Shown piece by piece: positions 2,271-56,389 of a stretch of DNA of 64,000 nt. A model generated the notes under the pieces. The model saw only the letters and a list, made by a program, of their open reading frames with translations, ran no database searches and was not told where the DNA came from. Numbering within the stretch: the first letter of the stretch is position 1; every line of letters starts with the position of its first letter. Made by a program: the position numbers and the translations under genes. The stretch comes from Ceratodon purpureus. Lineage: Eukaryota > Streptophyta > Bryopsida > Pseudoditrichales > Ditrichaceae. The stretch is taken from positions 56,105,375-56,169,374 of the forward strand of contig CM026426.1 in NCBI GenBank assembly GCA_014871385.1, in the 5' to 3' direction.

Positions 2271-2285
2271 GGGCTCCTAGACTTG

Positions 2286-3050
2286 ATGATCTTTGATGGT
2301 AGTGGGCCTTCTCAGGTGACTCAAGAGGAGAGGCTTGTGAAGAGGAAGGTCACTAGAGAGTTGTCAGAGGGCAGTACAAACTTTTTCCTCACAATGTATG
2401 CAGACAAGTATTGGGAGTATGATCGTAAACCATTCAAAGAGAGAAATTGGGTAGACTTTGCAGAGAAGTTGAATGTCGAGTTCCCCCAAGAGCCTCAGAG
2501 GACTTGGCAACAGTGTAGAGACAAGTGGTTGAGGATGAGGCATAAGTACTTAGAGGAGAAGGAGAAGCAGGGACAGACCGGAGCTGCACCTACAAGATGG
2601 CCTTGGTACGAGATTTTTGACAACATGCTTGGTGGTACCGCTAAGATTTGAGGTGTGCCACATGGTGTGGATCAGGGAATTCGCATGCCACATGAGGAGA
2701 TCCACTTGAGCGATGATGATGAAGAGTCTACACCAAAGGCCACTCCTACGAAGGCCAATTCCACTGCACCAATTTCACCACGCACGAGGGCGGCAAAGCA
2801 ACCACATTGGGTTGGTCAGTTGAACAAGAGTGCAGAGAAGCGGAGGAGGAAGTTGAGTGCAGGTGACCATGCGATTGCTAGTGCTATCACTGATTTCTCT
2901 AATGGCATCATAGAGATTGAGAAGATGAAACTACGGGTGACAGAGAAGATTATAGAGAGTGGGAAGCAGGGGAGAGAGATGGTCTTGCAGGGACAGTTGC
3001 AGAAGACAACATTGTTTGCAGAGGTCCTGAAGGCCAAAGGACAATCTTGA
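2286..3050 (+). pseudogene. Myb/SANT-like DNA-binding protein of a PIF/Harbinger element (copy A)
   Basis: In PIF/Harbinger transposons the Myb/SANT-like partner protein binds the element ends and helps bring the transposase to DNA in the nucleus. Here an ATG at 2286 follows a good splice acceptor (pyrimidine tract then CTATAG at about 2270), so an upstream exon is likely. The product has a trihelix/Myb-like region: conserved NWVDFAEKLN, then WQQCRDKWLRMRHKY, then WPWYEIFDNMLGG. An acidic, Thr/Pro-rich linker and a basic, helical C-terminus follow. An in-frame TGA at 2649-2651 separates the DNA-binding part from the C-terminal 131 residues, so this copy is probably dead. It faces the Harbinger transposase at 5354-6584. 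I am confident of the family and less sure of the exact start. Confidence 0.75.
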
Positions 3051-22278: not shown

Positions 22279-25200
22279 CTATTCCAAAATCAAAGGACTA
22301 TCACAGTTCTTGCAGACCACATAATTCTCTCCTCTCTCCACTACTGTGTTGACCTTACATTTGTCACAATGTATCTTGGGAACCTTGGGAAATACAGTCC
22401 TTTTCTGCTTAGAATGAGCCACAAGCGTGTGAGTTGGACGCTTTGAAGGTGGTTGTGACCCACTTCCTTCTCCATCTTCTTCAGTTACACGTTTCTTTCC
22501 ATGCCCCATCCGTGTTTGCTTTACATTCGCTTGAATCATGGCTAGAGATCCCCGTAGAGGCATCTCAACAGTTGGGGGTCTTTCAAAGGTAAACGGCTCT
22601 GATAGAGATGTTAGAAACTTTCCCACAACATTTGCTTTGTGTTTCACTTCTTCCTTCGTGTATGTTTCCAGTGAAGATCTTAATTCTTGACGCTTGGTCT
22701 CTGTTTTCACCAAATCCTCTAAAAATCTTCTTCTAGAATCATTATCTTCACCACTCTCTGTACTCATGTCTACATCTGGAGCATCTATATCCATGAAAGG
22801 AAGCGATTCCTCATTTTGATCATGCTCCGTCACATGCACTTCTGAGGTTGATGGAATAATGAAGTACTCTTGGACAATCTGTTGGACTCCCAAGTTGACA
22901 CTCTAGTTGGACAATCACAGAAATAAGTGTTCAAGGAAACACTATACTTGGTGTCTGGTGAACTTTCACTTACCACAGAGAACAACTTTAGCTCCAAGTT
23001 CACAACTTCCAATACAACACTCGGATCCGTTTGATAAGATTTGAATATGCGCTCTCCTCCTTTCAAGCGTCGGCGATGTTCCTTATCATTGCCTCTTCTA
23101 GAATACCTCTCAGAGTCACCTGTACATTACATCAAATTTTATTAGAACATTGATGAAATCTCAAAAAAATGTCTTCTGTAAAAAAATATAACAAAAAAAT
23201 TCAACTTTAAAAACACTTACTTATAAGTTGCACCATTTGAAAATGGTCTGTCAAAGTAGGTCCTCCAATACGACTCCCATCTTGAGTGCTACCAACAATA
23301 GCAACGATGAGATCTCTTAACGCACGATTCACCTTTCCCTATAGTAGAGTATACTTAATCCACTCCCAGTGCCTTTCTACATGGTTGGTTGTATCCATAC
23401 CACCATAAGAAAAGAGGCGCCCAAATCGTGGCCAAAGCTTTCTCCACGGGACATTTCACCTACTCAGCCAGCCTCCATGTAGTCTGCCACACTAGGTATG
23501 TGCTGAAAGTCTTCATAGAAATTTTTGAGATTATCCTCAAAATGCTCTTCCTTTGGACAATGCATCAGAACATGTAGGGCTAGCCACAACTTATTCTTTT
23601 CCGGTATAGGAACACGAGTTAAAAGGTTTTCACTCCAAGCTTTCATAACATGGAAATGACATAACAAAACCTTGCCAGCCACTTGTACCTTTACTCCATT
23701 CTCCGTGCTCCAACAATGATCATCAATCATCACAACGGCGTTGATAGAATTCAATGATGTTTTGTCTTTATCAATGACAATTGCAGACGGTCGTACTCCT
23801 TTCAAGGATTGAAAAACAGCCGTCAACGCCAACTCCAATGCTATACCGTGATGCCCTTGCTTCTTGTCCTTCGTACACAACATGTTGAACACAGGCACTC
23901 CCTTTCCATCTTGGTTTGGCACAATTGCAGCATATAACTGTAAATCATATTGATTAGTCTTGAAAGTAGAGTCCAGAGCCCAAGAGTTACCACGTGAGAA
24001 TCTTCTACCAACATCTCTCATCCAGTCATCTTGAATGACTACCACAAATGGCCGTTTCTTTTCGTCCTCGTGCTTTGGTGAATAAGGTTGGTAAAAAATA
24101 ACCTTCCCTTGTGTTTGCAGACTCCTAATTTCCACTTGAGCAGCATCCCAATCATCCTGGCGTAAAGCATCTACAAAACATGCAATAAATCCAATTAAAG
24201 ATTATTTTGCAAATAAAAAATACAATACAATTTTTTAAGTGACAAACTACAATAAAAAAATTTGAGTGACTAGAGGAAAACTTACCATTTACTCTCATAG
24301 TGTGCTTCAGTTGCTTTACTTCCTTTGGTATAATGAAAAATCGATAAGTCACTTGCTCCAAATTCCCAACCATAGCTTGAATTTTCTTTGCATCACGTTT
24401 GGATGCAAGAGACACTGTAGATGTTTAAACCATTCTCATCAAGTTCTCTCTGGCCATAGTCATAACATGTGGATGCACAGGCAAAAATAAAACATCACCT
24501 TCAGAACCTGGTTCATGTCCACTATGTCTGGTATGCACGAAAATAGAAGCAATCTTGTTGATGGATGCTCCTTTGTCTTCATCATCTATAATGGGCTCCA
24601 CAGTCTTCAACTTGAAAGAGCAATCCCGCAATCTGCTCTTCCTGTCTGGTCTGCCGTCCAAAAGCGAGAAGATCTCACTGCAGGTGCCTTCCTGTGAGGC
24701 CAACTTTTGTTTCCGCTCCTATGACAATGGTAGTACTTGACAATGTGATTTCTATACCTATTGGTATGACTCAACCTCCGTAAAACAACATATTCTGTGC
24801 ATATTTTATCCAGAGTGACATTTAAATGCCCGCAAGGAACTTCATGTATCTCATTCCACAGCTTAGATTCCTTGCAAGTGGAACAAGAATCAAGACAACT
24901 CTCTACATACTTGACCTGGATTCCCCCAACTCTGAAATCAGTTGTCCACTGTTCCCGAATTGCATCAAGCGTAGATGATAGGCTCAAATGTTTGCCATTT
25001 CTATCAACATGACACTTTTCAACTATTGAACACCAAAGTTCAATAGGAGGAATTTGCCTTCCCTTGAGTCTTGTTTTATAGGAGACAAACAAAAATTGTT
25101 ATTGACAGTTATTAACTTGACACTGTTTTGAAGTTTTTTCCATTGCTCAATGGTATGGAACACATCATTGACGTCTACAGGACGACCGTGACTCTTAGAA

Positions 25201-39289: not shown

Positions 39290-42200
39290 AACGTTGCCAA
39301 AATGGAAGAGATCAGGCGCAATGCACCGGACTAACAACGCATTCGCAGACGAGAAATACGATTGTTGGATCACGAACTTGCTCTTGCCAGACAGCGGAAC
39401 TCCAAAAGGATCCTTTGTCCCTGCCGAATACACATGAGGGAATCCGAACTTTCCATTGCATCGTACCGGCGCTGCGTCAGGGAGAACTCTCCTCACCCGT
39501 GGTTTTTTGGAGCTACAGAGGTATGCAAATATCCTATCACCACATGTTGTAATTGTGGGAAGTTGGAGCGACCATGTAGTCATTTAGGGAGTTGTGGTGC
39601 CTTATTTTGCTCTGATTCTCCCATTCAGCGGGTGCCGTTTCGCTATCTGCTAGTATAATGTCAGATGCTTGGTGGTTTATGTCTGTAATATATTTGCAAA
39701 ACAAGAGTTATCATCCCATACGCATCTCTCAACATTACACTAATTTGTAATATGCGCAGGGGGTCGATGCAGACGAATTCGATGACGAATGGGAGGATCA
39801 CATTGTATGGTGGTACGATGCTCAGGCCAGGAACAATGACAATGCACATGGTCCAAGGAATTTAGATCCCGGGATGGATATGACCGAGATGGTTGTCGAG
39901 GCCATGGACATTGTCGACAGGATTAGAGCGGAAGCAACCGAAGAAGGTGCAGACGTGGGACGTCCCCATGAACCGGGTGATGAAGGAGGTCACGAAGGGG
40001 ATCACCATGGGCAAGCAGCAGCAGAATTTGTGCAGCCAAGTCGGGAGCCTTACCATGACCAGGCAGGGTCTAGAGACATGGATGTCGATGGCGCATGCTA
40101 CGAAGCACCCTCCTTTGATACACCTGCTCACATAAGTCCCCCTCGCAAATGTTCACCTGAGAGACCATGCACTCCTTCACTTGACAGCGACAGAGATCTT
40201 CCCGCGGGCGGAGTCGAAGGGGTTGCAGGTCGACAATGGGCAGAAAGTGGGTCTGAGGCAGATGATCTCTCAGGGGATGATGAGGCCATGGACAGGGGTG
40301 AGTCTGATGATGAGTCAGACGTCGCAGTCATAGCTCTTGAAGAGGCGGCTGCAACACCTCTATTTGCAGGGTCGAATCACTCTAGCATGGGAACCACCTA
40401 TGTCCTTCTTAGTGGTGGGAAGTTACATGGTTGTACTGATACGTACATGAACGAGCTCTTTTGGACACTGAGTACCACGATACTTTCCGAGCCTAATTCG
40501 CTCCCGAAGACCTACCGCGAGGCTTCAGAGTACCTGAGAAGGCTCGGTCACTCATACAAGTCTTACGATGTATGTCCGAATAGGTGTAAACTATTCAAAG
40601 GTCCCTTGAAGAATGCAAGGGTATGTCCGGAATGCAGGGCACCACGGAAGAGGAGAGTTGGGAGATCTGAGGTTCCGTACAAGGTTTGTCGTGTGTTTCC
40701 ATTAACTCCAAGACTAAAGAGAATGTTTCGATCACCAATGGAGGCAGCTGCCATGACCTGGTGGGCGACATTGGGTGAAGAGGACGGCGTTATGAGACAT
40801 GTTTCTGACTCAGCGCAATGGAAGTGGATCAACAACCGCTATAGGGAAGAGTTTGGAAGCGAGGACAGAAATGTGCGGATGGCGCTAGTTACGGACGGGT
40901 TAAGTCAAAATTCAGATAAGCGAGGAACTTATTCAATTTGGCCCATTTTGTTGATGAGTTATAACATTGCCCCTTGGTTAACCACCAAGAATTATTTCAT
41001 TATGCTTTTGGTGCTTATCCCTGGGCCAAAATCCGTTACCGCTGAGCACTTTGATGTATTCATAGAGCCACTGATAGATGAGCTACTTGATCTTTGGACA
41101 TATGGGATATACTGTTGTGATGTGGCCAACTACAAGGAGTCCTCGCGTTTCATCCTGAAGGCAATGGTGATGTGGACAGTGGGAGATTTCCCGACATACG
41201 GAATGCTAGCTGGATGCACGACTAACGGCTTCGTGGGATGCCCTGTGTGTGGAGAGGGATTTTGGTCCAGGAGATCCAAGGTGCTCCACAAGAACATATT
41301 CTGTGGCTGCGCACGTGGATTCCTGCTTGAACATGATCACCACATGCGCTTTGATACGGAGAACTTTGATGACATTGAGGTGCGTGTGGCTCCACTACCG
41401 GTGATCGGGGCCGTGGCCTTGGCTCATGGAGAAGAGCGACTCCGGTGGCTTAGGGAGGAAGGCGCGCCTGCTCAACAAGATCCCGTTAGACGGAACGGAA
41501 TCAAACGAGTGTCTTCCCTCTTTCGACTGCCGTATTGGAAGGTTTGTGAACGCGAACCTTATAGACTTCATATGGTTTGGGGTTTGAAGTAGGGTTCGGG
41601 GGTGACATGTACTCGCTGGCCCATGAGGTATATATGCTTAGTTTGATGTCAACGTTAGACATGCATCATTTCAAACTTTCACGTGCAGACGTTAATATCC
41701 CGACCAAGATGACCGGCTTTGTATCCCAACGCCCACACTACCCTTGCATCTGTCCGCTTCATGAGCTGTAATGATGCCATTGAATACGCTGTGTGGGTGT
41801 AATTACCAGGATCCACCTCTCATCGGGCTGCATAATATGTGATGTCTAAGCGTATGGTATAGAATAAACGGCAACCTGTACCTTGACATTATTGGATTGA
41901 CCGTGTACATTTGTTGTCTTACATGGATATGGCAGACGTTTCCATGTCTGTAGTGGTCATACCTAGGTGTCACAGTATAGCAGTTCAGTTATTGTACATG
42001 TGTCTTGTTCTAACCATTGAGGTCAGAGTTTAATCTAAATTGAGTCATACGTTACAGGAACCAATGGTACCTCCGTTGCAACGATGCATTTTTTCAGAAT
42101 ACGTTTTGTACTGATTCTTGGGGTTGCGCGCAGGAGCTCCCAGTACGCCACACGCTCGATATGATGCATGTAGAAAAAAACGTGGCCGCAACCGTGGCTG

Positions 42201-44092
42201 CTTTTCTACTAGGCGATGAAGATACAATAGCTGTTCGAAGAGATTTGCAGGAGATGGGTGTGCGGGAAGAACTCCACCTGGTACGGGATGGGGACAATGA
42301 CAACTACCTCATTCCTCATGCTCCGTATGTGTTAAGAGAGCATGAAAAGAGACGAGTTCTGGAGACTATCAAATCAGTCCAAGTCCCATCCGGGCACTCT
42401 GCAAACTTCTCTAAGCTAAATAATCTGGAGAAGGGGAAGTTGCAGTTTATGAAGTCCCATGATTGGCACGTTCTGATCGAGGAGATACTTCCAGCAGCAC
42501 TGCGTGGTTCGTTGGCAGATGGTCCCCGTGTTGCCGTCATCCGACTTGGACATTGCTTCAAGATGATGTGTGAGAAGGTGATCCGAGTTAGCGAGTTGGA
42601 AGCGCTCACGACATATGTTGCAGAGACATTTGCGTTGTTAGAGATCCATTTTCCACCCGCCTTCTTGAATAAAATGGAACATCTTCCCTTACATCTTCCC
42701 CGAGAGCTTTATTGGTGCTGTCCCGTACACGCACGATGGATGTACAGTGTAGAGAGTTACCTGGGACACCTGAAGAGTTTAGTTAGGAACAAAGCTCGAC
42801 CAGAAGGATCTATGGCTATGGGCTACATGTATGAGGAGTCTCTTGGTTTCGTGACAAAGCATTTCAGAATGTATCCTGCAGCAGCAAGGGTAATCTGGGA
42901 CATGGACGAGGACATTCAAGACAATGGCGAAGTTTTAGAAGGCCGTGGTCGAGAGGCAACGTGGGGCGAAGATGAGTTGAAGGATCTGCACGAGCATATC
43001 ATACGACACACCAATGCAACAGACTAGCTGTACAGGTACATGCACGTACCAGACCTCGACTTTTCCAATGATTTGGGGTGCCTGTTTGTTTACCACATCA
43101 ATTGGAGTAGGTATGTCCAACCTACATTGCCTGTGTATGCTAAACGATTTAACCCAACACGCTACCTCTGCAATCCATGCAGTGAGTATACAGCACTTTA
43201 TGGCTCACAACATTGACGTAACCGAGGACGTGTGAAGCCGTTCTCAGACCGGCTGGAAGATAGGGTCCGTGAAATGAGTCAGTTAAGACTATCCCCGTCC
43301 GCCAAGTTGATCATAATGTCACGGCTCCCTTCAGTGATTGTAAAGCACCATTTGTCCATGTAGGCGTATGGTTACCATCTACGCGCTGAGGAAGAGAATG
43401 GCGCAAACTATGTGTCGTTTGACGGAGGAGTAGCAGCAATTATAACTCAAACATGCCAATCGTCCAGAGCTGACCAAAACCTGGTAGATGCGGAGCTCCC
43501 TTACGTGGGCATCATTAAGGACATTTTGGAAGTGGACTACAGACATATCAAACGGAATGTCCTCAGGTGCTCTTGGATTAAGCCAAACCTGCAGGAGGAA
43601 GAAACCATACGACCCGACGTCAAGTATGCCAGCCGGCAGCCACCCGGGGTCGAACCATATCTGCAACCCGTACATGCTCGACAGGTACGCCAAATTCTAT
43701 GAACCACGATACACGCAGTGGAAGTCACTCTTTCACATATAGATAGCCACACACCATTCTTCCGCTGTATTCTCAAGCATGTCATGAATGAAGAACTGAA
43801 TTTCTACATATCTGCTTGGTCGAGCAGGTGTATTTTGTAGACGACCCCCTAGACAGGGAGTGGAAGGTGGTGCGTTATAAAACCCCATGGTCGAAGCGCG
43901 TCGTTGACGGACTCTCGAAGGGTTCTCTATCCGCACCCGGTCGGTTGAACGCCACCCGCTGGTTTTCGCAAATGCTCCTGGAGCAAATCCCGTACAGGAA
44001 TTGCCGCCGGAACCAGTCCTCCAGGCTGACATTGACCATGTCATGGCCCACGAGGAATCAGATGACGAGGAATCAGATCACGTTTTTTTTTT
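39290..44092 (+). pseudogene. CACTA (En/Spm) TNP2-like transposase gene
   Basis: Exon 1 (about 39290-39520) carries the transposase-associated domain: ILCPCRIHM, then ASYRRCVRENSPHPWFFGATE. Exon 2 (39760-41541) carries the acidic linker and the tnp2 domain: YKSYDVCPNRCKLF, CPECRAPRK, ALVTDGLSQN, YSIWPILLMSYNIAPW, VLIPGPKSVTAEHFDV, and CTTNGFVGCPVCG. It ends LFRLPYWK at a donor. Exon 3 (from 42134) continues LPVRHTLDMMHVEKNVAAT and a DUF4218-like region (FPPAFLNKMEHLPLHLPREL, VESYLGHLKSLVRNKARPEG). After a stop at 43025-43027, downstream segments encode a DUF4216-like domain (LEVDYRHIKRNVLRCSW, then VYFVDDPLDREWKVV after a 43683-43828 intron). The transposase cuts and rejoins CACTA ends. Stops in exon 1 and after exon 3, and a shift near 43960, suggest an inactive copy. 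Confidence 0.85.
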
Positions 44093-45076: not shown

Positions 45077-45085
45077 GTTGGATCC
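45077..45085. repeat. Left 9-bp target site duplication of MULE copy 1
   Basis: GTTGGATCC immediately before the left terminus is repeated exactly at 54965-54973. A 9-bp duplication is the Mutator superfamily hallmark. Confidence 0.95.
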
Positions 45086-45369
45086 GGGTCTATTTAATTC
45101 CCCCCTACAAGCGTTGCATTCTGCCCTCGCGCGGGCAGGGGCAGCGCTTGCCTCCCCGAGCCTCCTTCGCCCGACCCTAGCCCTCCCCGGCCCCGCTCCC
45201 GGCCCCGCAGCCGCCCCCGCGCGCCCGCCCAGCACCCCCCGCCGGGGCTACACCCTGCCCGCGCCCCGGCCTCATCCAACCCTCATCCCCGCCCCGTTGT
45301 CGTTCCACCCCCCCCCCCCCCCCGCCCCTCCTCCCCCGTCGTCCCCCCCCAAGCAATACTGCGCCGGCA
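45086..45369 (+). repeat. Left terminal inverted repeat of MULE copy 1
   Basis: A very C-rich repeat (runs of CCCCGG, and C18 at about 45307) ending CTGCGCCGGC. It pairs with 54688-54964. Frames across it are composition artefacts. Confidence 0.95.
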
Positions 45370-45420
45370 CTGTAGACGGCGCTTTGATTGTGACCGAGGG
45401 GATCTAAATTCCCTGCCGAG

Positions 45421-45502
45421 TTAGGCCGGGATGTTTGAATTGAGGCGATGGATCTGAATTCTTGGGCGAGTTAGGACAGGGGGTTTGAATTGAGGCGATG
45501 GA
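45421..45502. repeat. Two direct repeats of about 49 bp just inside the left TIR
   Basis: GAGTTAGG.C.GG followed by GTTTGAATTGAGGCGATGGA occurs at 45418-45453 and 45468-45502. The second unit contains the dispersed motif TTAGGACAG. This subterminal position is where MULE transposase or host factors often bind. Confidence 0.8.
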
Positions 45503-45725
45503 GGTGCGTGAGTGGGAGAGACGTGCTGGATCCTGAGGGAATAGCCTGGCTTCTGGTGTGACTTTTGCTCTCGTCTTGCACTGTATCGTGTGGGGATGGA
45601 AAGGTGATAATTCGGTGATGGGCTGTGGGCGGCCAGAGCTGGGTGTGAGTGCTGTCCTGGACACTAAGGTCGGAGAGATGAAAGTTAAGAACTTACAACG
45701 GCTGCATTAGGGTGGACAGTTGCAT

Positions 45726-48700
45726 ATGGACCATGGTCATCATTGTGGTTCGAGCTGTGTGGGACGTGGATTGAAACTGCAGGGACAGGCTGCTGGTCAA
45801 CATCAAGGTGTTGCCCATGATGTTCGAGATGAGACGTTTGCAGTCGACTTGGCTGCAGCCGATGATGACTTCCACTGGGATTCCGACGACAGCAGCCCCG
45901 AAGTTCCAGGACAGCCAACGGTGGTTTTAATTGAGGGTGTCCTAAATACTCAGGACACGCTTCCAGATCAGGTTACTGTGGGTCGAGGGGGAGCAGTTGA
46001 AGACATTGGCCTGGATGTATCCACACAGGGGCTAGATCTGAATGAGGAGCAGGTCCACGTTGCAGATAAAGACGGGGTTCTTCTTGGTGGCACTACTGTG
46101 GACATCGATCCCAACGAGAAGAAGAAGAGGCCCTCTTGGAGGAAACTCCTGGAGAAGGTCCAGAACTCTGTGCAGATCCCCCTCCCAGGCCCCTTCTTCA
46201 GGACAGATTTGAAGTGGGAGATTAAGTCTAACCAGGGAAGAGGGAAGAAGAGGGAAACGCAGAAGGCCACCATACCTTGGGATAGGCTTGATGACTTCAT
46301 AGAAGGAGAGATGTCTAGTCGTCAACATCTTTGTACTTTTGTTGAGGAGTCCCGGAAGTGCATAAAGAAGGAAGCCAGAAAGCAGGTTCGGGCAGAATCT
46401 GCAGTTCAAGAAATAAGGTATGGTGTCTCTGTCCTAAGTTTGTGATAGTCGAAGTTGAATTGCTACTGTCGGCTTGTTTGTCCTGTCCTAAACTTCCTGC
46501 GGGGGTGCCCATAGGTCGACTGTTTAGTAGGTTTAGGGTGAATAGCTTCTCTGACCTAAATTTGCTGTTCCATGTTTCTCAGCTACTGGTGCCAATATGG
46601 CCCTGAAGATTATAGCAGACAGTATAAGGTCGAAGTTCAGAAGGCTTTTGCACACTGTCTGACTCAGAAGAAGAATTCAACAAACGAGAGGAAGGCCTTA
46701 CAGCGTGCAAGGAAGATTGTCGACAAAGCAGCCAAGGACGCAGCAGCAAAGCCCCGGCCTAAGAAGAAAAGTAAGACAGAAGTTACCCTGGATCTGAATG
46801 CAGAGCCCATTGACGGGAAGCCTTGCCACGGAGCAGAGTTCGGGGGGCAGCGAGCTGGCCTATCAGGGCAGTTGTCTGCAGCAACCAAGCAGTGGATCGC
46901 AGAGTCTCTTAGGGCAGGTAAATCTCCAGCACAGGTCATGGCGGATCATAAAGCCAAGGTTCTCCGATTGGCCCAGAATAATTTGCCTCCTACCAGAGAC
47001 ACTTTCATTATGCCTGCAGACGTCTACAACTTGGCCAACAAGCTTGCAAAAGAGTTGTGGGAGAAGGATCCCAGTGATGCGAAGAGTGTGAAGATGTGGA
47101 CCGATGAAAATCCGGACAGCTACTTCTACTACCGCAGTGATGAGAAAATCGACCTCAATAACCCCCCTCCCCCCGAAGACGACCCATTTTGTATAGCACT
47201 GCAGACCGAGTGGCAGCTGGATATGATGATTAGACATGGCCACCGAAGGGCTTTGTCAATGGACGCAACGTTTTCTACGAACATCTGTAGGGTAAGCCCA
47301 CTGCCCTTGCAAATCGTATTAGGACACCCCTGTGCTAAGACAGTGTTTGGCTACTCTGTACATTCTAACCGAGACTTGTTTTCATTTTCCAGTATCCGCT
47401 CTACACAGTAATGGTTTTCGACGAATGGGAGCAGGGAATACCAGTTGCATTTGCCATTCAGGGGCAGTCAAGAGAAGTCGATATTGTTCCCTGGCTTCAG
47501 AAGTTGAGGGACCGGTGTGTGGCTGTGCAACCAGATTGGAAACCAAATGTTTTTCTAGTGGACAATGATCAGACCGAGCTGAATGCTATAAGGTATACAT
47601 CGAGGTTGTAATTCTCCAGTACTGTTTCACTGTCCTAAGATTTAGGGTTAGTCCTGACTGAATTTTCTGGAAACGTGTTGCAGGATGGTCTGGCCTGATG
47701 CAGATGAGGTAGGAGGAAACTCTAAGGACGAAGTGAAGATTCTCTTGTGCTTGTGGCACACTAGAAAGGCTTGGCTTGAAAATGCAACACAAAAAATTAA
47801 AGCCAACTACCTCCGTGCTGAGATACTTGCAGCCTGTGCTGACCTAATGTTTGGTAACGGGATACTGCAGGGTGATCTTGCTGTATAGGCGGCACAGGCC
47901 AGATTCGTGCATTTGAAGGCGAAGTATCCTCAGGCTAAGGCCTTTTTTAATTATTTCGAGAAAACCTGGATACCAAAAATTGAGATGTGGGTAAAGGGCT
48001 ATCGAAACATGCCCCATGCGAATCAGGATACTAATGCCGCTGTGGAGAGCTACCACGCAAATCTGAAGTCAATCTTGAGAACAAGCCGGCAGAAGTGGGG
48101 TGGACAACGGATTGACAGGTTGATTTATCACTTACTGAAAGATGTTTTAACACATTATTGGTATGCAGTGCAGTGTAAGCTTTATGGCTTCATAAAAAAC
48201 GGAAAGGCAGAGGGGATAGTGGCAAGTGCTGTAATTTGAGCTGAGGAGATTCCAGACGAGCATGTGAAGATTTCAGAGGAGGATGACATAGCTTATGTGG
48301 CCTCTCAAACAAATTTCCCAAACATTTGGGTGGTGACCAGTCCAAATACAGATTGGGCGTCCTGCAATTGCCCACTAGGTATGAGAGGAAATATTTGTTA
48401 ACATGTCATTAAAGTTTTCAGGATGATTAATAAGGGGCTTGAGGCTTCTGATATAATCAGGTACGCTGGAAGTCTTCGGGGAACAATTCAGATGGGGGCT
48501 GCTCCGGCTGGGCTTCATACACTGCAGGAACAGGATGCAGTGGGGACTACTCAGCAAATTCGCCAAGCTGCTGTGAAGACAGAGGATCCAGAGAAGCTAT
48601 TGGAGGAGTTCCTCATTGACCTAGGTGACTGTGGAACACTTGCTAGAGAAAATGCAAGTCTGAGAAGCCATTTCAGAGTAATGGCTAAGGAATTTAGGGG

Positions 48701-48863
48701 TAAGATGGAGACGTTGAAGGTGAAGTCTGATAAAGGCCTTCTACATCCCCTTTCACAACCAGCTCTCAAGGCCATTGCTGGACCCAACAACTTGCGCCGT
48801 TTCAAAGCTTGTTCGGAAATTGGACGCAAGAAGTCCAGCACCAGGGGAAGAAGTCGGACTTAG
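45726..48863 (+). pseudogene. mudrA-like: MULE transposase (mudrA-like), four exons
   Basis: Exons 45726-46417, 46583-47291, 47393-47592 and 47684-48863 join in phase at GT-AG borders to 926 codons. The N-terminus is acidic, followed by a basic DNA-binding-like region (RKLLEKVQNSV, KKRETQKATIPWDRL, KARKIVDKAAK-type). The DDE core has the first Asp in LSMDATFSTN, second in VFLVDNDQTELNAI, the CxxH motif in LLCLWHTRKAW, and Glu in NAAVESYHANLKS. A SWIM zinc finger follows (SCNCPLGMRGNIC then HVIKVFRM). The transposase binds the inverted repeats and makes 9-bp staggered cuts. In-frame stops at 47886-47888 (TAG), 48237-48239 (TGA) and 48399-48401 (TAA, between the SWIM Cys and His) imply this copy is not functional. 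Confidence 0.9.
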
Positions 48864-50069
48864 GACACACTGCCAAAGATTTCTCGGTGGTTGGGAGAGG
48901 TCAATTTTGACATTCTTAGATTTACATCAAACCTTTGTTGTATTTGAAATTCAGCTATGAGTATTTTCTCGAAGTAGCTGTGATACATCTTTATTCTTGT
49001 ATGTCCAGTACTAACACACAGTATGTTCCTGCTCTTGTTTCTGTATCTCCATTCGGGTGACCTATTGTTCGCTGTCCTAAGTCCTCTGTAGTAACATTCC
49101 GTCTCTTAACGTGGTGTGTCCTAACAGAATTATAAACAGTCGTTACTTTTTTATCTCTTCCGCGTTTTCATTGCCCTCTGTTTGTTTATTCCTTTGTTTT
49201 TCAAGTACTTCTATTCCCTCTTATTTTCCCGGTTACTGTATTTCCTGTCCTAACGTGCAGAGTGACACTTGCCATCCTACTTTTCCCTTTTTTGTATTTC
49301 CTGCTCCCTGTCCTAAGAGTCCATTTGAACTCAGCACTCGCCGTTTCTCTCCTTCTACTGTGTTTATTTTTATTAATCTTCAGTCCATAACCCTTTTATT
49401 TTCCTTCATGCCTATCGTACCTGTCCTAAGATTCACAGTGTGCAGTGGCCATCAGTTTTTTAATGTTTTTTCTATATATTACTTTTTCTTTTAATTTTTT
49501 TATTTTTTATTCTTTAAAAATTTTAAATTTTATTTGTTTTGTTTCTACGTTGTCCATTTTTTTCCAATTCATCCGGGCCCTAATATTCAATTTGGCACTT
49601 GCTTATTTATTTTTATTTTTATTTATGATTTTTTTTTTAAAAAAAATTTCTTTAATTTTTATTATTTGCGTTTATCCCTGTCCTAAATTTCTCATCCAGA
49701 AAGCTTTTTTAATCTTTAAAATTGTTTATATCGGTCCGCATTTAATCCATTGCATCCCTGTCCTAATATTCACATCGGCACTTGCCATTTTTTAATTTTT
49801 TTTCTGCCCGGTTTGAATTTTTAATTACTTATTTTCCATATTCAATTATTATTTTGTGGTCTGTCCCAACATTATAGTTTAATATGTCCGTTCTGTGCTG
49901 TCCTAACATTCTCATTTGGAATGGGCTGCCGTCACAATTTGAAACACTGAAGATGCATTTGATTTAGGACACCAATGCGTTCACAACATAAACGAACCCG
50001 CAAGCCCCTTTACCAGCCCCAATCCGATCAACTCCGCACCAACCCCCTTACAGTATTGAACTAACCAGC

Positions 50070-50108
<39 letters not shown>

Positions 50109-50215
50109 AAGGTCCAATTGTTTTCAAACTTGCATCCCCATCGAGCAATCCAAAGTCCAGAACAGCGCCTAACCCGCAGCCGTCATTGCCCTCTTACCTA
50201 GACGCCTGTCCTAAC
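48860..50215. repeat. Cluster of CTGTCCTAA motifs in the MULE copy 1 spacer
   Basis: TGTCCTAA (or TTAGGACA) occurs 11 times here: near 48860, 49073, 49117, 49246, 49309, 49422, 49679, 49759, 49900, 49974 and 50207, mostly as CCTGTCCTAA in the same orientation. Further copies are near 45471, 45938, 46430, 46484, 47319, 47631, 53667 and 54679. All but one (45938) are in introns, flanks or the spacer. Confidence 0.9.
50069..50110. repeat. C30-A12 homopolymer pair
   Basis: Thirty C followed directly by twelve A, in the spacer just past the 3' end of the accessory gene. The length is probably unstable, and sequencing error is possible. Confidence 0.9.
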
Positions 50216-50272
50216 TACCCAAACCATGATGAACTCGGCATCTGTACAACAAACTAACATCTGGCAACCCGT

Positions 50273-53200
50273 CTAAGCATTACCCTTAAAAACCACTATC
50301 GGGGCAAATAATTCTACTCTAGGCTCAGTGTCTTCCACCTGCCCCCAGTGCCCCCCCTCCTCCGTCTCGGTTGCACCCTGCCACCCCGGCCCGCCTTGCT
50401 CCACCACGGTGTCTCCTGTGTTGACCCTGCCGTGCCCTTCCCCGGTGTAGTGCGCTGCCTCAAACCTGCAGAGGACCTGCGACGCTCTGAAGTCGTCCAG
50501 ATCTTCGAGGTCGTCGTTTAGATTCCACGCTGTGATCTTTGCCTTGCAGGAGTACTGGCTCTCCACCAGCAATTTCTTCGACGCCTGGAAGAACTCTTCG
50601 CCCCCCCTCGCCCCGATACCAGTGCACTCAAGGGAGCCGAAGCAATACTCCAAGTCCATGTTTTCTCGAAGTAGGAGGATGGACCTGAATGCCCTGGTGA
50701 CGGCTTCAGTGTCAACTCCGCCTTCCTTCGCCACCCACATGTCCCTCAGCACGTCCAGTTGGTCCAAGTTCACCATGTCGAGACATGCCCTGATGAAGGT
50801 GTTTCGGCGCCAGTGAACGAAAAGCCCCACCTGTCCCCCGCGATTGTCTCCCTCATCGAGCACCATCCTGAAATCCTCGAAATCGTCCCCTGAAATATCC
50901 ATAGTCGGAAAATAAATCTTGCCGACCCGAATAAGCTCTTCCATGGCGAACATGATCTGATCAGGGCGGTCCAACATAGTATCCTCTGTAAGACCACGCA
51001 CAGGGCAGAGCATTGGCATTTTGGCTCCGATCTCGCCCCTTGCATACAGTTTAAGAGCCCGCGCCATGTGCGGCGGTGAATTCTTTTCGCCGATCCGAAC
51101 TCCCTCTTCCTTAAACCAGGCGACTAGCTTCTGGAACTCATCCTCCGTGTGGAGAAAAGGCCGGGCCAAGCAAGGGGGAGTGGGCACGAGTATGAAGTCG
51201 GCATACAGTGGCGACCAAATCCAGGCCTTCTTCTCAGCTTCCATGACCAGATCCATTTCAAACCGGTGCAACGCCTCCTGCACAAATTTCTTTCAGTTGA
51301 CGTCCACCTGCCTGGCTCTCTCCTCGAACTCTTTCAGCTTCCCCTGATACGTCATCACGTCGTCGTGATGCAAATAGAACTGATCAATTTCTTTCTCAAT
51401 CTGCGTCACGGATTTCTTCACGAAAGCTGCCTTGCAGCGGTCCACCGCTTGCAGAACTTCCTTGGCTAGGCCGGCCTGCCAAAAGCACCCTGTGTTACCT
51501 TAAGGAAACTACATTTTTCAAAGACGTTGCATGAAAACAGTTTGAACTCTTACCGTGAGTTCCGTGTCGAACTGCAGCGCTCCCCAGGCATTAGCCACCT
51601 TCCGAGAGAGATGCCCAAGTTCTTGCAGCGAGCGGAGGGTCGAAACAGCCCGCTGAAGATCATTTAGCAGGTCAGTCGGAATAATCTCACCAGTTAGCTC
51701 TACCAGGCAATACAAGCCAGGCGGCTGGGACGGTTCCTTCGGTGCCTCAGCCGGGTCCAGATCGGGGAACAACTCGAGGGCCTTCAAACGGGCATTCTGC
51801 TGCACCTCAAACCTGGCCCTTGTCTCTGGATCCTTCGGGAGGGAAGTGGTCCTCCAATTTGTCGCCGTTTCTTGCTGCCCGGGTGTTCCATCCGGCCCGC
51901 CCTGCTGCCCACCCCTGCTGGCCTCGCCTCTGGGAGTTCCCTCTACCACTTCCGGCGCTTCCTCCGACCTGCTACGCTTCCCACTGGGTTCGCATGCGTC
52001 CTCTTCCACCCCCTCGTCCCGACCTCTCCTTGTCGCCTTCGGAGCCGGAGTACCCTGTCCCGCGGCAGCAGCACCCTGTGTGCGACTGCCAATACCCTTC
52101 CCTGCAGCCGGCGTTGCTGTCCGCGTTGGACTGCTGCTGCATTCTCTGTTGCGCTGCGCCTTCCCCTTAGCACTCCCCGTCCCCTTCCCCTTAGGTGCAG
52201 CACTCCCGCTTGCCTTCTTCCCTGCAGGTGTGGCGTGGTCCTTACGCCTTTCCTCCAAGATTTCTGCAACACTCGGACCCTTCCCGACCCTGACCTTCTT
52301 CGTGCTGTACTCTTGGCCGAGTTCCACCTGGTCCTTCCTCCTTGGTGTCTTCTCCCCGCTCGGGCTGGATAAGACAATCACCTCCGGAATCCCACGCCCG
52401 CTGATATCCTCTCCTATGTCCTCGGACGCTGTGTCGTCCCCTTCATCCTCCCCGTTAGGCCCAATCTCCTGTTCCAACTCCTTGGGCGCCATGTGCTTGC
52501 CCATCATTTGCCAAGGAACCGGGATTTTGTACTTCTTAAACACTAATCTTGACTCCTTGTTCCCGTCCACTCCACGGCAGGGGTAAATCTTCAGCTAGCC
52601 CCGCTTATTGGACTCGTACACCGAGCACTGATCCATCTTCCTATGCCAGGACAGGTGAGCCTTGTCAACCATGTCCGTGTTGCAAAATCTGCAGACGAAG
52701 GGAATCTTGAAACGACCCTTTCCATTTCCCTGGCTCACATACGCCCGTCGCCAAAGCAGATTAACCTCTACCATCATCCAGACGTATTCTGAGATGGTAA
52801 AGGCATCCCTATTCGGGTCGTAGCATGTCCAAGTGCTTTGGCAAACAATGACAGCCTCCCGCCCCTGCTTCCCCAACACGTAGAGCTACAGGAACACAAC
52901 CGGCAACGCACAATATCAGTGTTTTTGCAGAAGCCCCCCTTCCTCCCTACAGCATACAGATACCCAGCGAATGAAGAGAATCTTGTGTAACTCAAAATAA
53001 AAACTCACCCCTTCGACAATGCCAGGTGCCTGAACGGCGATCTTCTCTTGCCACGATGTAGGTAGTGACTGCACATTCAGAATAGTCGCCCTGGCCTTGA
53101 GCACACGGCAGGCTTCTTCTCCGCTCAAACCCGAAAGGTCCGGGGGATTGCGGTCGTTGATCTGGACCACAACACAGGTCAGGCAGGAGCTCGAGAGATA

Positions 53201-54282
53201 AACAGACACCGTGGGAAACAAAAAAAATAAAGGCAAAGAGCAAAAGCAGATTAAAGCAGACAGAAATGGAAAAAAAAACTAAGAAATCAGGGAATGATAA
53301 GACATGCCTACACCGGCAATAAGTGATGAAGATTAATTGAACCATAGCGGAAAAAAAAAAAAAAAAAATTAAAAAAAAAAAAAAAAGATACAAAAAAAGG
53401 GAGAAAAGAAGCATGACTGTTCGGACAGGCCAAAATGATGAAGAAGGACAATGCAAAACGAAAATTAAAGGAATAACAGAAGCATAAGAAAGAGTCCTGG
53501 CAGACATGATCTAGGGAAAAATGGAGATGGATGGTGAATTCAGTGAAGACGTATTTGCAGAAGCAATATCAGGGTACGGCCTCAAGTAAGGAAAACGTGA
53601 GTTGTAAATGATAAAATGAAACGGAAACAAATAATTTTTTTTTAAAAAAAAGGCCTCATGCGTCTGTTAGGACAGGCCGTAACAGGGTACACGTAACGAA
53701 GAAAAAAGAACACAAAATAAAATAACAAAAGGAAAAATGCAAGTGAAAAACGGCACTGACTGAAGAATAACATAAAAAGGATAGAGGAGAGACTGTACTC
53801 AGAGAGAAAACATGAGAACAGAGTGAAACCCCAAGAGATAAGATTAAAAAAATTAAATACTACCGAAGAGATAGTCGCCGGGGAGGAGAAAGGCGTGGGA
53901 AGCAGACTGCTATCGACGAAGAGGAAAATAGACAAAACAGATAGCCGCGTCGTCAAGAAGAGCTCAAGCTACGTGAGAAGGAAACTTAAAAAAAAAAAAA
54001 AAAAAAAAACAGGAGATACGTGACCGAGACAGGAGAAGAAAACGGGGAAGGAGAGGACCACAGCAAACCCTAGAACAGATTGAAATGACGACCAGGAAGG
54101 CAGCGCGAGATACTCGAGAGAGGACAAGCATGGACAGCCGACGACTAGGGGCCGAGACGGAGCAAAACCAAGCAACAAGTCGAAGAACAGAGTGATGGAC
54201 TTGGATTGACTGCCGAAACACTTACAGAAGAGGAACACAGGCAGATCGAAGAGGGACTTACGAGATGAATAAAGTTCGCCAT
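50273..54282 (-). pseudogene. Unidentified accessory gene of MULE copy 1, five exons, about 900 codons
   Basis: All junctions are phase 0 and GT-AG: exon 1 54282-54262 (MANFIHL), exon 2 53161-53009, exon 3/4 52885-51554, exon 5 51475-50273. Order of parts: a short helical N-terminus (DLSGLSGEEACRVLKAR); a possible zinc finger (CRFCNTDMVDKAHLSWHRKMDQC-type spacing, C-x2-C, two His, Cys) near residue 140; an acidic then basic, Ala/Gly/Ser-rich disordered region; a helical segment (LLNDLQRAVSTLRSLQEL); a coiled-coil-like stretch (KEIDQFYLHHDDVM); and a 330-residue globular C-terminus with no family I recognise. TAG at 52595-52597 and TGA at 51293-51295 interrupt an otherwise open frame. It converges on the transposase. 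By position it may aid transposition as mudrB does for MuDR, but this is inference. Confidence 0.75.
53340..54015. other. Long intron 1 of the MULE copy 1 accessory gene
   Basis: The intron between exon 1 and exon 2 spans 54261-53162. It contains A-tracts (53350-53390, 53988-54010) and one GTTAGGACAGG motif at 53666. No gene is seen on either strand. Confidence 0.6.
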
Positions 54283-54687
54283 CGTCAAACCAACGTCACC
54301 GACACCTAAGTCTGCCGCCCCGCAACGCCGACTCAGCTCAGTCCGTGAACCCTCCTTCTCCCCACGCAGCGATGAAGTCCCCACTACTCTCCGTCAAATA
54401 CTCTACGTCAACCTAAAGCCGTTCGGCGGGGCTTAGTATCGTCCCTCGACTCCAAACAGTAAACCTTGCTGCCGGCCCTCTCCCCACCGTCTCCGATGTA
54501 ACCCTTGAGCTGGCAAACTCTCCTCAAACACGAACAGCAGCTCCGTTGAGGAAGACGACTTACGCAATCAAAGCACCGGAGACCTAAAACCCTACGCCAC
54601 TACAGCTCTCAAAGAGTGAAGTTTCTGGAAAAATTTGCCATAGCCTGTCCTAGACTGAGCAACGGACTTGTGAGTGAGTTAGGACAG

Positions 54688-54964
54688 GCCGGCGCAGTAA
54701 TGCTTGGGGGGGGGACGACGGGGGAGGAGGGGCGGGAGGGTGGAACGACAACGAGGCGGGGATGAAGGTTGGATGAGGCCGGGGCCCGGGCAGGGGGTGC
54801 AGCCCGGGCGGGGGGTGCAGGACGGGCGCGCGGGGGCGAGTGCGGGGCCGGGAGCAGGGCCGGGGAGGGCCAGGGTCGGGCGAAGGAGGCTCGGGGAGGC
54901 AAGCGCTGCCCCTGCCCGCGCGAGGGCAGAATGCAACGCTTGTAGGGGGGAATTAACGAGACCC
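54688..54964 (-). repeat. Right terminal inverted repeat of MULE copy 1
   Basis: Reverse-complement partner of 45086-45369. A GTTAGGACAGG motif abuts its inner edge (54678-54688) and CCTGTCCTAG lies at 54644. Confidence 0.95.
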
Positions 54965-54973
54965 GTTGGATCC
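54965..54973. repeat. Right 9-bp target site duplication of MULE copy 1
   Basis: GTTGGATCC, identical to 45077-45085. Confidence 0.95.
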
Positions 54974-55351: not shown

Positions 55352-56377
55352 TCAAAATCTAGTACTACCACCTTTTGCACTAATTACTTCCTTCATACGT
55401 GTAGGCATGGTATCAATAAGGTTTTCTAAGAGGTCAAAAGGTATCTCTTCCCATACTCTTTGAAGTTGTTCCACCAATTCTTGTGCATTGCTTGGCCGGG
55501 ATTTACTTTGAACTTCATCTTTAATAATTTTTCATAGGTTCTCAATTGGATTTAGATCTGGAGAGTTGGCAGGCCACTTCAACTTCGTTATACCGATTTT
55601 TTGTCTCCACTTGTTTGGCAAATTGCTGCGATGGACTGGAGCGCCATCCTCCATAAGTAACATGTCTTTGTGAGGTTTATGGATAAAATAAAATGGAGTT
55701 AAAGCGCCATCGTAAATAAGTTCCACAAAATCACCTGCACTTCGCTTATCTGAAGGTATGATTACCAAAGGAGCCTTCTCAAAGCCACTAAAAGCACTCC
55801 AAACCATCACCGACGTACGCGCGGACTTGAAAGTTGGTACTAGACATTTATCTGAATATCTTTCATAAGCCTTTCGCCGCACTCTAATTTGTCTAGAACT
55901 CCTTCCTATTTCGAAAGATGATTCATCAGTCCAAATAACCTTCTTCCAATCCTTCTTTGTCGAGTTTTTATGCTCTTTAGCAAATGCTAACCTGTCTGCC
56001 ATGTGCTTTCTACTGAGAAAAGGTTTTTTTACTGCAACACAGCTTCTATAACCAAGGGTATGCAAAGCATTCCTGAAAGTACAAGTACTAACCTTTGCAA
56101 CACGTGCCATCTCATTTGTAATTTCTGTGAGTGGTTTACGACGATCTTCATTAAGGAGACGTTCTAACTGTCTCATATCCCGCTCTGTAAACTTTCGAGG
56201 CCTACCCGTTGGCTTTGGTGACTTCACACTTCCTCGTTTTTGGAAACTGTTTATAACACCATAAACGGTGGAAGAAGGCATACCTAATTCTCTTGCTATC
56301 TCCACACCTTTGCTTCCAGCTGTGTGCATTCCAACTACTTGTCCTTTCTCAGCATCTATCAAGGCTCTAGTCTTCAT
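55352..56377 (-). pseudogene. Tc1-like DD34E transposase with one internal stop
   Basis: The ATG at 56377 (MKTRALIDAEKG) starts a 341-codon frame, the usual Tc1 length. The N-terminal paired helix-turn-helix domain includes GVEIARELGMPSSTVYGVI, a GRPRK hook (PTGRPRKFTERD) and a second HTH (NALHTLGYRS). The DDE core has WTDESSFE, LLMEDGAPVH, and SPDLNPIE. The gap between the second Asp and the Glu is 34 residues, so DD34E. The C-terminus ends in ISAKGGSTRF, matching the typical AKGG.T.(Y/F) Tc1 ending. A single TGA (55532-55534) replaces the Trp of the invariant NPIENLW motif; otherwise the frame is open. The protein cuts at TA sites. Land plants usually carry the DD39D mariner type, so this branch is unexpected. 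I could not identify the inverted repeats. Confidence 0.9.
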
Positions 56378-56389
56378 CTTTCTCAAAAG

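What the first reader, a model, noticed from the sequence alone, without database searches (positions are those of the whole stretch)
45086..54964. Complete MULE with a convergent accessory gene of unknown family
The element is bounded by perfect 9-bp duplications and 280-bp inverted repeats. Besides the transposase it carries a spliced gene of about 900 codons in convergent orientation, as mudrB does in MuDR. The protein has a possible zinc finger and a long unknown C-terminus. mudrB is known from Zea relatives only, so an independent second gene in another plant lineage would be new.
Basis: partly seen in the sequence, partly recalled or inferred. Interest (0 to 1): 0.8.

Follow-up and report, generated by a model that had tools for sequence, protein, structure and literature searches.

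The report
Moss transposons with helper-gene DNA address tags
A large family of jumping genes in what is probably a moss genome carries a second gene of no recognised family together with many copies of a short family-specific DNA word, an arrangement like the one by which some Arabidopsis jumping genes switch themselves back on after the plant has silenced them.

Summary
The element is real: 9-bp duplications GTTGGATCC, inverted repeats of about 285 bp (90% identical), a MULE transposase and a convergent spliced accessory gene. The window copy is dead (three in-frame stops in the transposase, two in the accessory gene). The accessory gene is no single capture: of 120 copies scored in the same 362-Mb genome, 104 have a convergent MULE transposase within 16 kb. 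Many are open; dN/dS is 0.06-0.19 in representative pairs. It matches no Pfam family convincingly; a C-x2-C-x12-H-x5-C motif is invariant.

CTGTCCTAA occurs 14 times in the window, always in non-coding DNA of this element. Ten of 13 elements read carry such arrays (CTGTCCTAA, CTGTCCGG or CTGGCCTAA), and the word follows the element's clade; three do not. Genome-wide, 20 of 20 close same-orientation CTGTCCTAA pairs lie within 8 kb of these genes; opposite-orientation pairs number 0. This resembles the VANC/VANDAL anti-silencing system of Arabidopsis, without detected protein relationship. Inferred mechanism: the accessory protein binds its family's word and de-represses the element (about 0.45). 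Alternatives: integration helper with transposase-read words, or autoregulation.

The parts
45077..45085 (.). left 9-bp target-site duplication GTTGGATCC
   Evidence: read
54965..54973 (.). right 9-bp target-site duplication GTTGGATCC
   Evidence: read
45086..45373 (+). left terminal inverted repeat
   Evidence: (90% identity)
54684..54964 (-). right terminal inverted repeat
45720..46417 (+). transposase exon 1 (approximate; start codon not fixed)
   Evidence: donor GT read
46583..47291 (+). transposase exon 2 (lacks a zinc-binding-like stretch present in relatives)
47393..47592 (+). transposase exon 3 (catalytic region; MULE domain in spliced intact relative)
47684..48863 (+). transposase exon 4 (DUF5575_C-like region, SWIM-like motif); stops at 47886, 48237, 48399
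48864..50272 (.). non-coding region between the convergent genes; 8 of the 14 CTGTCCTAA sites, all in + orientation
50273..51479 (-). accessory gene C-terminal exon ('A5', about 400 codons; TGA at 51293-51295)
51554..52886 (-). accessory gene long exon: conserved N-terminal part with C-x2-C-x12-H-x5-C motif, variable basic middle (TAG at 52595-52597)
53009..53161 (-). accessory gene upstream exon ('A2'; boundaries approximate)
45400..45502 (.). 50-bp tandem repeat, 2.1 copies, one unit carrying the word (45471-45479, -)
45471..45479 (-). CTGTCCTAA site
46429..46437 (+). CTGTCCTAA site, transposase intron 1
46483..46491 (+). CTGTCCTAA site, transposase intron 1
47630..47638 (+). CTGTCCTAA site, transposase intron 3
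49072..49080 (+). CTGTCCTAA site; further + sites begin at 49245, 49308, 49421, 49678, 49758, 49898
50206..50214 (+). CTGTCCTAA site
53667..53675 (-). CTGTCCTAA site, upstream of the placed accessory exons
54679..54687 (-). CTGTCCTAA site at the inner edge of the right TIR

Best explanation
A decayed copy of a diverse, recently active two-gene MULE family. Gene 1 is a MULE transposase. Gene 2, convergent to it, encodes a diverging but constrained protein with a C2HC-type zinc-finger-like motif. Shown: the two genes are inherited together, gene 2 is under purifying selection, and 10 of 13 elements read carry, mainly in non-coding DNA, a dispersed array of a short word (CTGTCC-TAA, CTGTCC-GG or CTGGCC-TAA) whose spelling follows the element's clade. 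Inferred: the word is the address read by the element's own protein, most likely gene 2, which loads on the arrays in introns, the intergenic region and gene ends and counteracts host silencing of that family only. That is how VANC works on VANDAL elements, here with a protein not detectably related.
For: Multi-copy accessory gene: 120 scored of 389 candidates; 104 of 120 convergent with a transposase, median distance 2.9 kb; 127 of 150 scored transposases have an accessory gene within 16 kb in either orientation. Same layout of the parts found in 13 of 13 elements. Recent activity, from TIR identity: 8 of 9 elements with both ends have TIRs 98-100% identical. Purifying selection: dN/dS median 0.083 over the 25 of 406 pairs with dS 0.05-1.2 (pairs share members). 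MULE domain E 8.2e-11, above cutoff, in the spliced transposase of an intact copy. C-x2-C-x12-H-x5-C invariant in 9 of 9 rows; profile meets PRDM9 finger chains at 2.5e-5 for the whole chain, no single stretch passing alone. Word: 14 of 14 exact sites of the 64-kb window are in this element and outside its exons; top 9-mer 14 copies against a maximum of 5 in 60 shuffles; 10 of 13 elements have such a word above shuffles; flanks of the 14 sites little conserved. Non-coding preference: CTGTCCTAA 51 non-coding (23.2 kb) v 7 coding (29.7 kb), p 3e-12; without the discovery element 37 v 7, p 4e-8. Genome-wide close pairs: CTGTCCTAA 20 (reversed control 1), 20 of 20 within 8 kb of these genes, which is 0.8% of the genome; CTGTCCGG 67 (control 12), 49 of 67; CTGGCCTAA 4 of 4 in one element. 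Same orientation 20, opposite 0. Word follows accessory clade; of 102 accessory loci 25 have CGG pairs, 11 TAA pairs, none both. Words that differ between families in one genome point to an element-encoded reader.
Against: No binding, expression or methylation data. 3 of 13 elements (C9, C13b, C4) lack a clear CTGTCC-type array above shuffles although they carry the accessory gene. 18 of 67 CTGTCCGG pairs lie elsewhere, and CTGTCCGG is also frequent in exons (13 coding v 43 non-coding). The accessory protein is not clearly faster in every pair: C13b-C4 differ by 0.088 in the accessory exon and 0.079 in the transposase. CpG observed/expected is higher in non-coding than coding parts in 12 of 13 elements, but also in array-less C13b and C4, so it does not support array-linked hypomethylation. 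The window's own genes are broken. 23 of 150 scored transposases have no accessory gene found.
Confidence: 0.45

Rival explanations
1. The accessory protein is a transposition or integration helper in the manner of MURB, and the word arrays are read by the transposase as internal or subterminal binding sites.
For: MURB is reported as needed for new insertions (passage of PMC9168764). Transposase and accessory trees agree, so either protein could have co-evolved with the word.
Against: The words lie largely in introns and the intergenic region rather than at the ends. The transposase C-terminal part is mostly more conserved than the accessory exon (median end branch 0.12 v 0.32; C7-C11b 0.008 v 0.26; but C13b-C4 0.079 v 0.088) although the word differs between families.
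Confidence: 0.25
2. The accessory protein is a transcription activator or repressor of its own element (TnpA-like autoregulation) without removal of silencing marks.
For: Words lie near both genes and in introns; zinc-finger-like motif.
Against: In several elements about half or more of the words lie between the 3' ends rather than at the 5' ends. Hard to separate from anti-silencing by sequence alone; activation of Spm by TnpA correlates with demethylation (passage of PMC10398659).
Confidence: 0.17
3. The words are RNA-level or local-repeat features (branch points, 3'-end signals, by-products of minisatellite expansion) with no protein reader.
For: Some copies are in introns, one 46 nt before a 3' splice site; some arrays are short tandem repeats.
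Against: In the window copy 3 of 14 sites are in placed introns and 8 are intergenic; the CGG words do not keep the CTAA branch-point-like core; flanks of the 14 sites are little conserved, so most are not simple duplicates; word spelling is clade-specific.
Confidence: 0.1
4. A single captured host gene carried by one element.
For: None found.
Against: 119 further scored copies, 35-73% identical, 103 of them in the same convergent layout.
Confidence: 0.01

Closest known systems
VANDAL elements and VANC anti-silencing proteins (Arabidopsis; PMC5735166 parts 1-3 of 6 read, PMC10398659 passages)
   Same: MULE; accessory protein more variable than the transposase; short (8-9 bp) words dense in introns, intergenic and terminal non-coding regions; arrays in one orientation, partly tandem; word differs between families
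   Different: no DUF1985/DUF287 match; zinc-finger-like motif instead; one accessory gene seen, convergent; TIRs of 262-348 bp; probably a moss
MuDR mudrB of maize
   Same: second gene in opposite orientation to the transposase (passage of PMC9168764)
   Different: MURB sequence was not on hand to compare; no word arrays mentioned in the passages seen
ORFR of Abermu MULEs (barley and other plants; PMC9168764 passages)
   Same: oppositely oriented, divergent second gene of unknown function between transposase and 3' TIR
   Different: sequence not on hand to compare; no word arrays mentioned in the passages seen
Antisense plant-mobile-domain genes of MULEs (PMC6446971 passages)
   Same: antisense accessory gene in several MULE groups
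   Different: no plant mobile domain match here
En/Spm TnpA (CACTA)
   Same: element-encoded protein whose activating effect correlates with demethylation (PMC10398659 passage); repeated short binding sites (recalled)
   Different: different superfamily; sites subterminal there (recalled), largely internal here

Membership tests
MULE (Mutator-like) superfamily | MULE transposase domain PF10551 | tested here: met
   E 8.2e-11, 42.7 bits against cutoff 27.6, spliced transposase of intact copy C13a; the broken window copy was not tested spliced, and the window ORFs scanned singly do not match it
MULE (Mutator-like) superfamily | 8-11 bp target-site duplication and TIRs | tested here: met
   perfect 9-bp duplications in 9 of 9 elements with both ends, compared by eye (in C9 and C11b after shifting the printed boundary); TIRs 262-348 bp
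MULE (Mutator-like) superfamily | SWIM zinc finger | tested here: met
   SWIM above cutoff in C4 (21.0 v 19.6 bits), below it in C13a (18.0) and C7 (16.7)
VANC (VANDAL anti-silencing protein) | DUF1985 / DUF287 domains | tested here: not met
   no such Pfam match at E <= 1 in 13 and 9 members
VANC-like system (by working) | family-specific short word dense in non-coding DNA of the element, one orientation | tested here: met
   3 of 13 elements lack it
VANC-like system (by working) | accessory protein binds the word | not testable with these tools
   needs EMSA or ChIP/DAP-seq
VANC-like system (by working) | expression causes sequence-specific loss of methylation | not testable with these tools
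   needs methylomes
MURB (mudrB) | sequence similarity to MURB | not tested
   no MURB sequence on hand
Plant mobile domain accessory genes | PMD domain | tested here: not met
   no such Pfam match at E <= 1
Pack-MULE gene capture | host gene fragment in an element without transposase, not kept across copies | tested here: not met

The most novel reading that the evidence does not exclude
A sequence-specific anti-silencing system that evolved separately from VANC, in bryophyte MULEs, using an unrelated zinc-finger protein and its own coevolving word arrays. Mu-like transposons would then have invented the same escape from silencing at least twice, at opposite ends of the land plants, and within one genome the code would have split into at least three dialects.
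Probability: 0.4. Interest if true: 0.85.

Novelty: new variant of a known kind. Interest (0 to 1): 0.66.

Why it matters
VANC is a well-studied way in which a plant transposon undoes its own silencing with little harm to the host, and in the papers seen it is described from Arabidopsis (a 2022 paper on eudicots is known here by title only). An analogous but unrelated system in a moss would show that family-specific escape from silencing is a recurrent solution, give ready-made pairs of protein and target word for comparison, and offer sequence-specific epigenome tools. The more than 100 copies and three word classes in one genome make the coevolution question directly testable by binding assays.

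Tried and rejected
Single captured host gene: rejected. Branch-point reading of the word: rejected as the main explanation (intronic sites of the window copy lie 145, 91 and 46 nt before the 3' splice site, 8 of 14 sites are intergenic, CGG class lacks CTAA). VANC homology: no DUF1985/DUF287. PDB relatives of the C-terminal exon: best E 0.16; of the transposase: none. Structure prediction from single sequences gave poor models (pLDDT 50.7 and 34.4), so no fold search was run. Attribution of the word to accessory rather than transposase by tree discordance: trees agree, no discrimination. CpG depletion as a methylation trace: ambiguous. A word for C13b/C4 (CYGTCCTG): not shown to be enriched in non-coding DNA. 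Other moss genomes could not be searched: the collections on hand hold prokaryotes, phages, plasmids and environmental contigs, besides this one genome. Organism named by inference only: 362 Mb with one 110-Mb contig fits Ceratodon purpureus, 360 Mb with U and V each over 100 Mb (passage of PMC8000587).

Full report
What is there. The finding at 45086-54964 is a real MULE insertion. GTTGGATCC flanks it on both sides (45077-45085, 54965-54973; read). The inverted repeats are 45086-45373 and 54684-54964, 90% identical. On the + strand lie four transposase exons, and on the - strand, facing them, three placed exons of an accessory gene of about 900 codons. The window copy is dead: two in-frame stops interrupt the accessory gene, and three stops and a missing piece of exon 2 interrupt the transposase.

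Where it is. The genome (G000) has 362.5 Mb in 151 contigs; the window lies on C6, of 110.5 Mb. This fits the fire moss Ceratodon purpureus, with a 360-Mb genome and U and V chromosomes each over 100 Mb (passages of PMC8000587). The name is my inference and comes from no record of the window.

Is the accessory gene part of the element family? Yes. Its C-terminal exon gave 120 scored relatives of 389 candidates in the same genome. A transposase piece gave 150 scored of 621. 104 of the 120 accessory copies have a transposase in convergent orientation within 16 kb, median 2.9 kb. The other 16 have no scored transposase within 16 kb in any orientation. A more distant accessory copy as query gave 96 scored rows, of which I took 37 places as a second subfamily (8 of them already among the 120; one adjacent piece dropped). 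Of these 37, 30 are convergent with one of 33 scored transposases that I compared. In total 127 of 150 transposases have an accessory gene within 16 kb, orientation not asked. I read 13 elements (the window copy and 12 others); the parts found have the same order and orientation in 13 of 13, but the A2 exon was not detected in C11a, nor A2 and A3 in C5. Nine of the 13 were read from end to end: nine of nine have TIRs (8 of 9 are 98-100% identical, the window copy 90%) and perfect 9-bp duplications by eye. I infer that the family has moved recently. The spliced transposase of intact copy C13a matches the Pfam MULE domain at 8.2e-11, above cutoff.

The protein. The exons are open in many copies. 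dN/dS of the C-terminal exon was computed for 406 pairs of 29 copies (4 of 33 with stops dropped). The 25 pairs with dS 0.05-1.2, many sharing members, have median 0.083. Representative separate pairs give 0.185 (C11b-C7), 0.15 (C5-C8), 0.061 (L018-L016) and 0.057 (C13b-C4); one close pair with few changes gives 0.51 (L023-L024). The zinc-finger exon gives 0.066 and 0.021 in the 2 usable of 85 pairs. The long exon has a conserved N-terminal part with an invariant C-x2-C-x12-H-x5-C motif (9 of 9 rows) and a variable middle rich in Gly, Lys and Arg. Pfam gave only weak matches (zf-C2H2 E 0.093 in 1 of 9 rows; best 0.023 in 2 of 13 rows of the C-terminal exon). The profile of the long exon meets PRDM9 zinc-finger chains at 2.5e-5 for the whole chain, though no single stretch passes alone. 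No DUF1985, DUF287 or plant mobile domain was found.

The word arrays. CTGTCCTAA occurs 14 times exactly in the 64-kb window, 14 of 14 inside this element and 14 of 14 outside its coding exons. The largest count of any non-simple 9-mer in 60 dinucleotide shuffles of the element is 5; six other segments of the window reach 3-7. The 9 bases are fixed by the search and the flanks are little conserved. The word was chosen on this element, so the other elements are the test. It is also the commonest 9-mer of C7 (15), C11b (17), C13a (6) and C2 (6), above shuffles in each (C2 narrowly, 6 v 5). C11a, C3, C8 and C5 have no CTGTCCTAA but carry CTGTCCGG (16, 15, 14 and 11 copies). C1 has CTGGCCTAA (8) besides a few CTGTCCTAA. 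C9, C13b and C4 have no CTGTCC-type array above shuffles. Leaving out the element of discovery, CTGTCCTAA sites are 37 non-coding (18.8 kb) to 7 coding (24.2 kb), p 4e-8; CTGTCCGG sites 29 (19.3 kb) to 11 (17.7 kb), p 0.007. Coding bounds are approximate, and for C1, C3, C8 and C5, read without both ends, some flank may be counted as non-coding.

Genome-wide control. Two CTGTCCTAA in one orientation within 30 bp occur 20 times in 362 Mb (reversed pattern: 1), and 20 of 20 lie within 8 kb of a scored accessory or transposase place; such places make up 0.8% of the genome. In opposite orientation (word, then its complement) the number is 0. CTGTCCGG pairs: 67 (control 12), 49 of 67 near these genes and 18 elsewhere. 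CTGGCCTAA pairs: 4, 4 of 4 in element C1, control 0. Of 102 accessory loci ranked by similarity to the C11a protein, 25 have CGG pairs within 8 kb, 11 TAA pairs, none both. CGG loci score higher (Mann-Whitney p 0.015). The 35 closest have 19 and 0, the other 67 have 6 and 11 (Fisher 2e-5), but I set that split with the list in view and the loci are related. On the accessory tree the CGG elements form one clade (84/94), and the elements with two or more CTGGCCTAA another (100/100) beside the window's clade. The transposase tree shows the same CGG group (100/99) and the W-C1 pair (98/99), so the trees do not tell which protein reads the word. The accessory exon is mostly the faster-changing (median end branch 0.32 v 0.12; C7-C11b 0.26 v 0.008), but hardly so in C13b-C4 (0.088 v 0.079).

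Comparison with what is known. The parts of PMC5735166 that I read (1-3 of 6) describe VANC21 of VANDAL21. It binds the 9-base YAGTATTAY, which is clustered in one orientation in non-coding regions such as introns, intergenic and terminal parts, partly as tandem repeats. VANC6 uses a different word. [quoted passage not shown] The elements described here match these anatomical points, except that three of 13 lack arrays (tandem units). They fail the membership test for VANC itself: neither of its domains is found. Seven searches on moss, Ceratodon, MULE, accessory-gene or anti-silencing terms (listings only, four of them showing a part of the papers found) showed no report of this gene or these words in a moss; subscription papers are mostly absent from that library.

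Mechanism. Shown: co-inheritance, selection, arrays, clade-specific spelling. I give this 0.45, against 0.25 for transposase-read sites with an integration helper, 0.17 for autoregulation without anti-silencing, and 0.1 for no protein reader. CpG content does not help: non-coding parts are less depleted than coding parts in 12 of 13 elements, but the array-less C13b and C4 show it too.

Noticed in passing
window 23464-24135 (-): A second, different MULE transposase fragment (Pfam MULE 2.2e-13); not examined for an accessory gene or word array.
   Followed up: no
window 39874-41592 (+) and 42161-43027 (+): Transposase_21 (tnp2) ORF (1.2e-50), probably CACTA-type, followed by a DUF4218 ORF (7.8e-28).
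   Followed up: no
window 55532-56386 (-): Tc1/mariner-type transposase ORF directly beside the MULE (HTH_Tnp_Tc3_2 1.7e-15, DDE_3 4.4e-9).
   Followed up: no
window 1854-2651 (+): Myb/SANT-like DNA-binding ORF (1.7e-8), a type that often accompanies plant transposons (recalled).
   Followed up: no
G000 C2:20226671, C9:5805238, C9:16658649, C2:10631788, C6:825883 (loci L019, L020, L022-L024): One accessory clade has, instead of a clear CTGTCC array, GAGTGGAAA/GGGAATGGA-type and related repeats near the accessory gene; possibly another word class.
   Followed up: partly
G000 C6:14298799, C6:24795811, C2:7883351 and others (18 places): CTGTCCGG pairs away from the accessory and transposase places compared; may be non-autonomous or fragmentary relatives sharing the word (later shows an accessory fragment at C6:14295583, near three of them).
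   Followed up: partly
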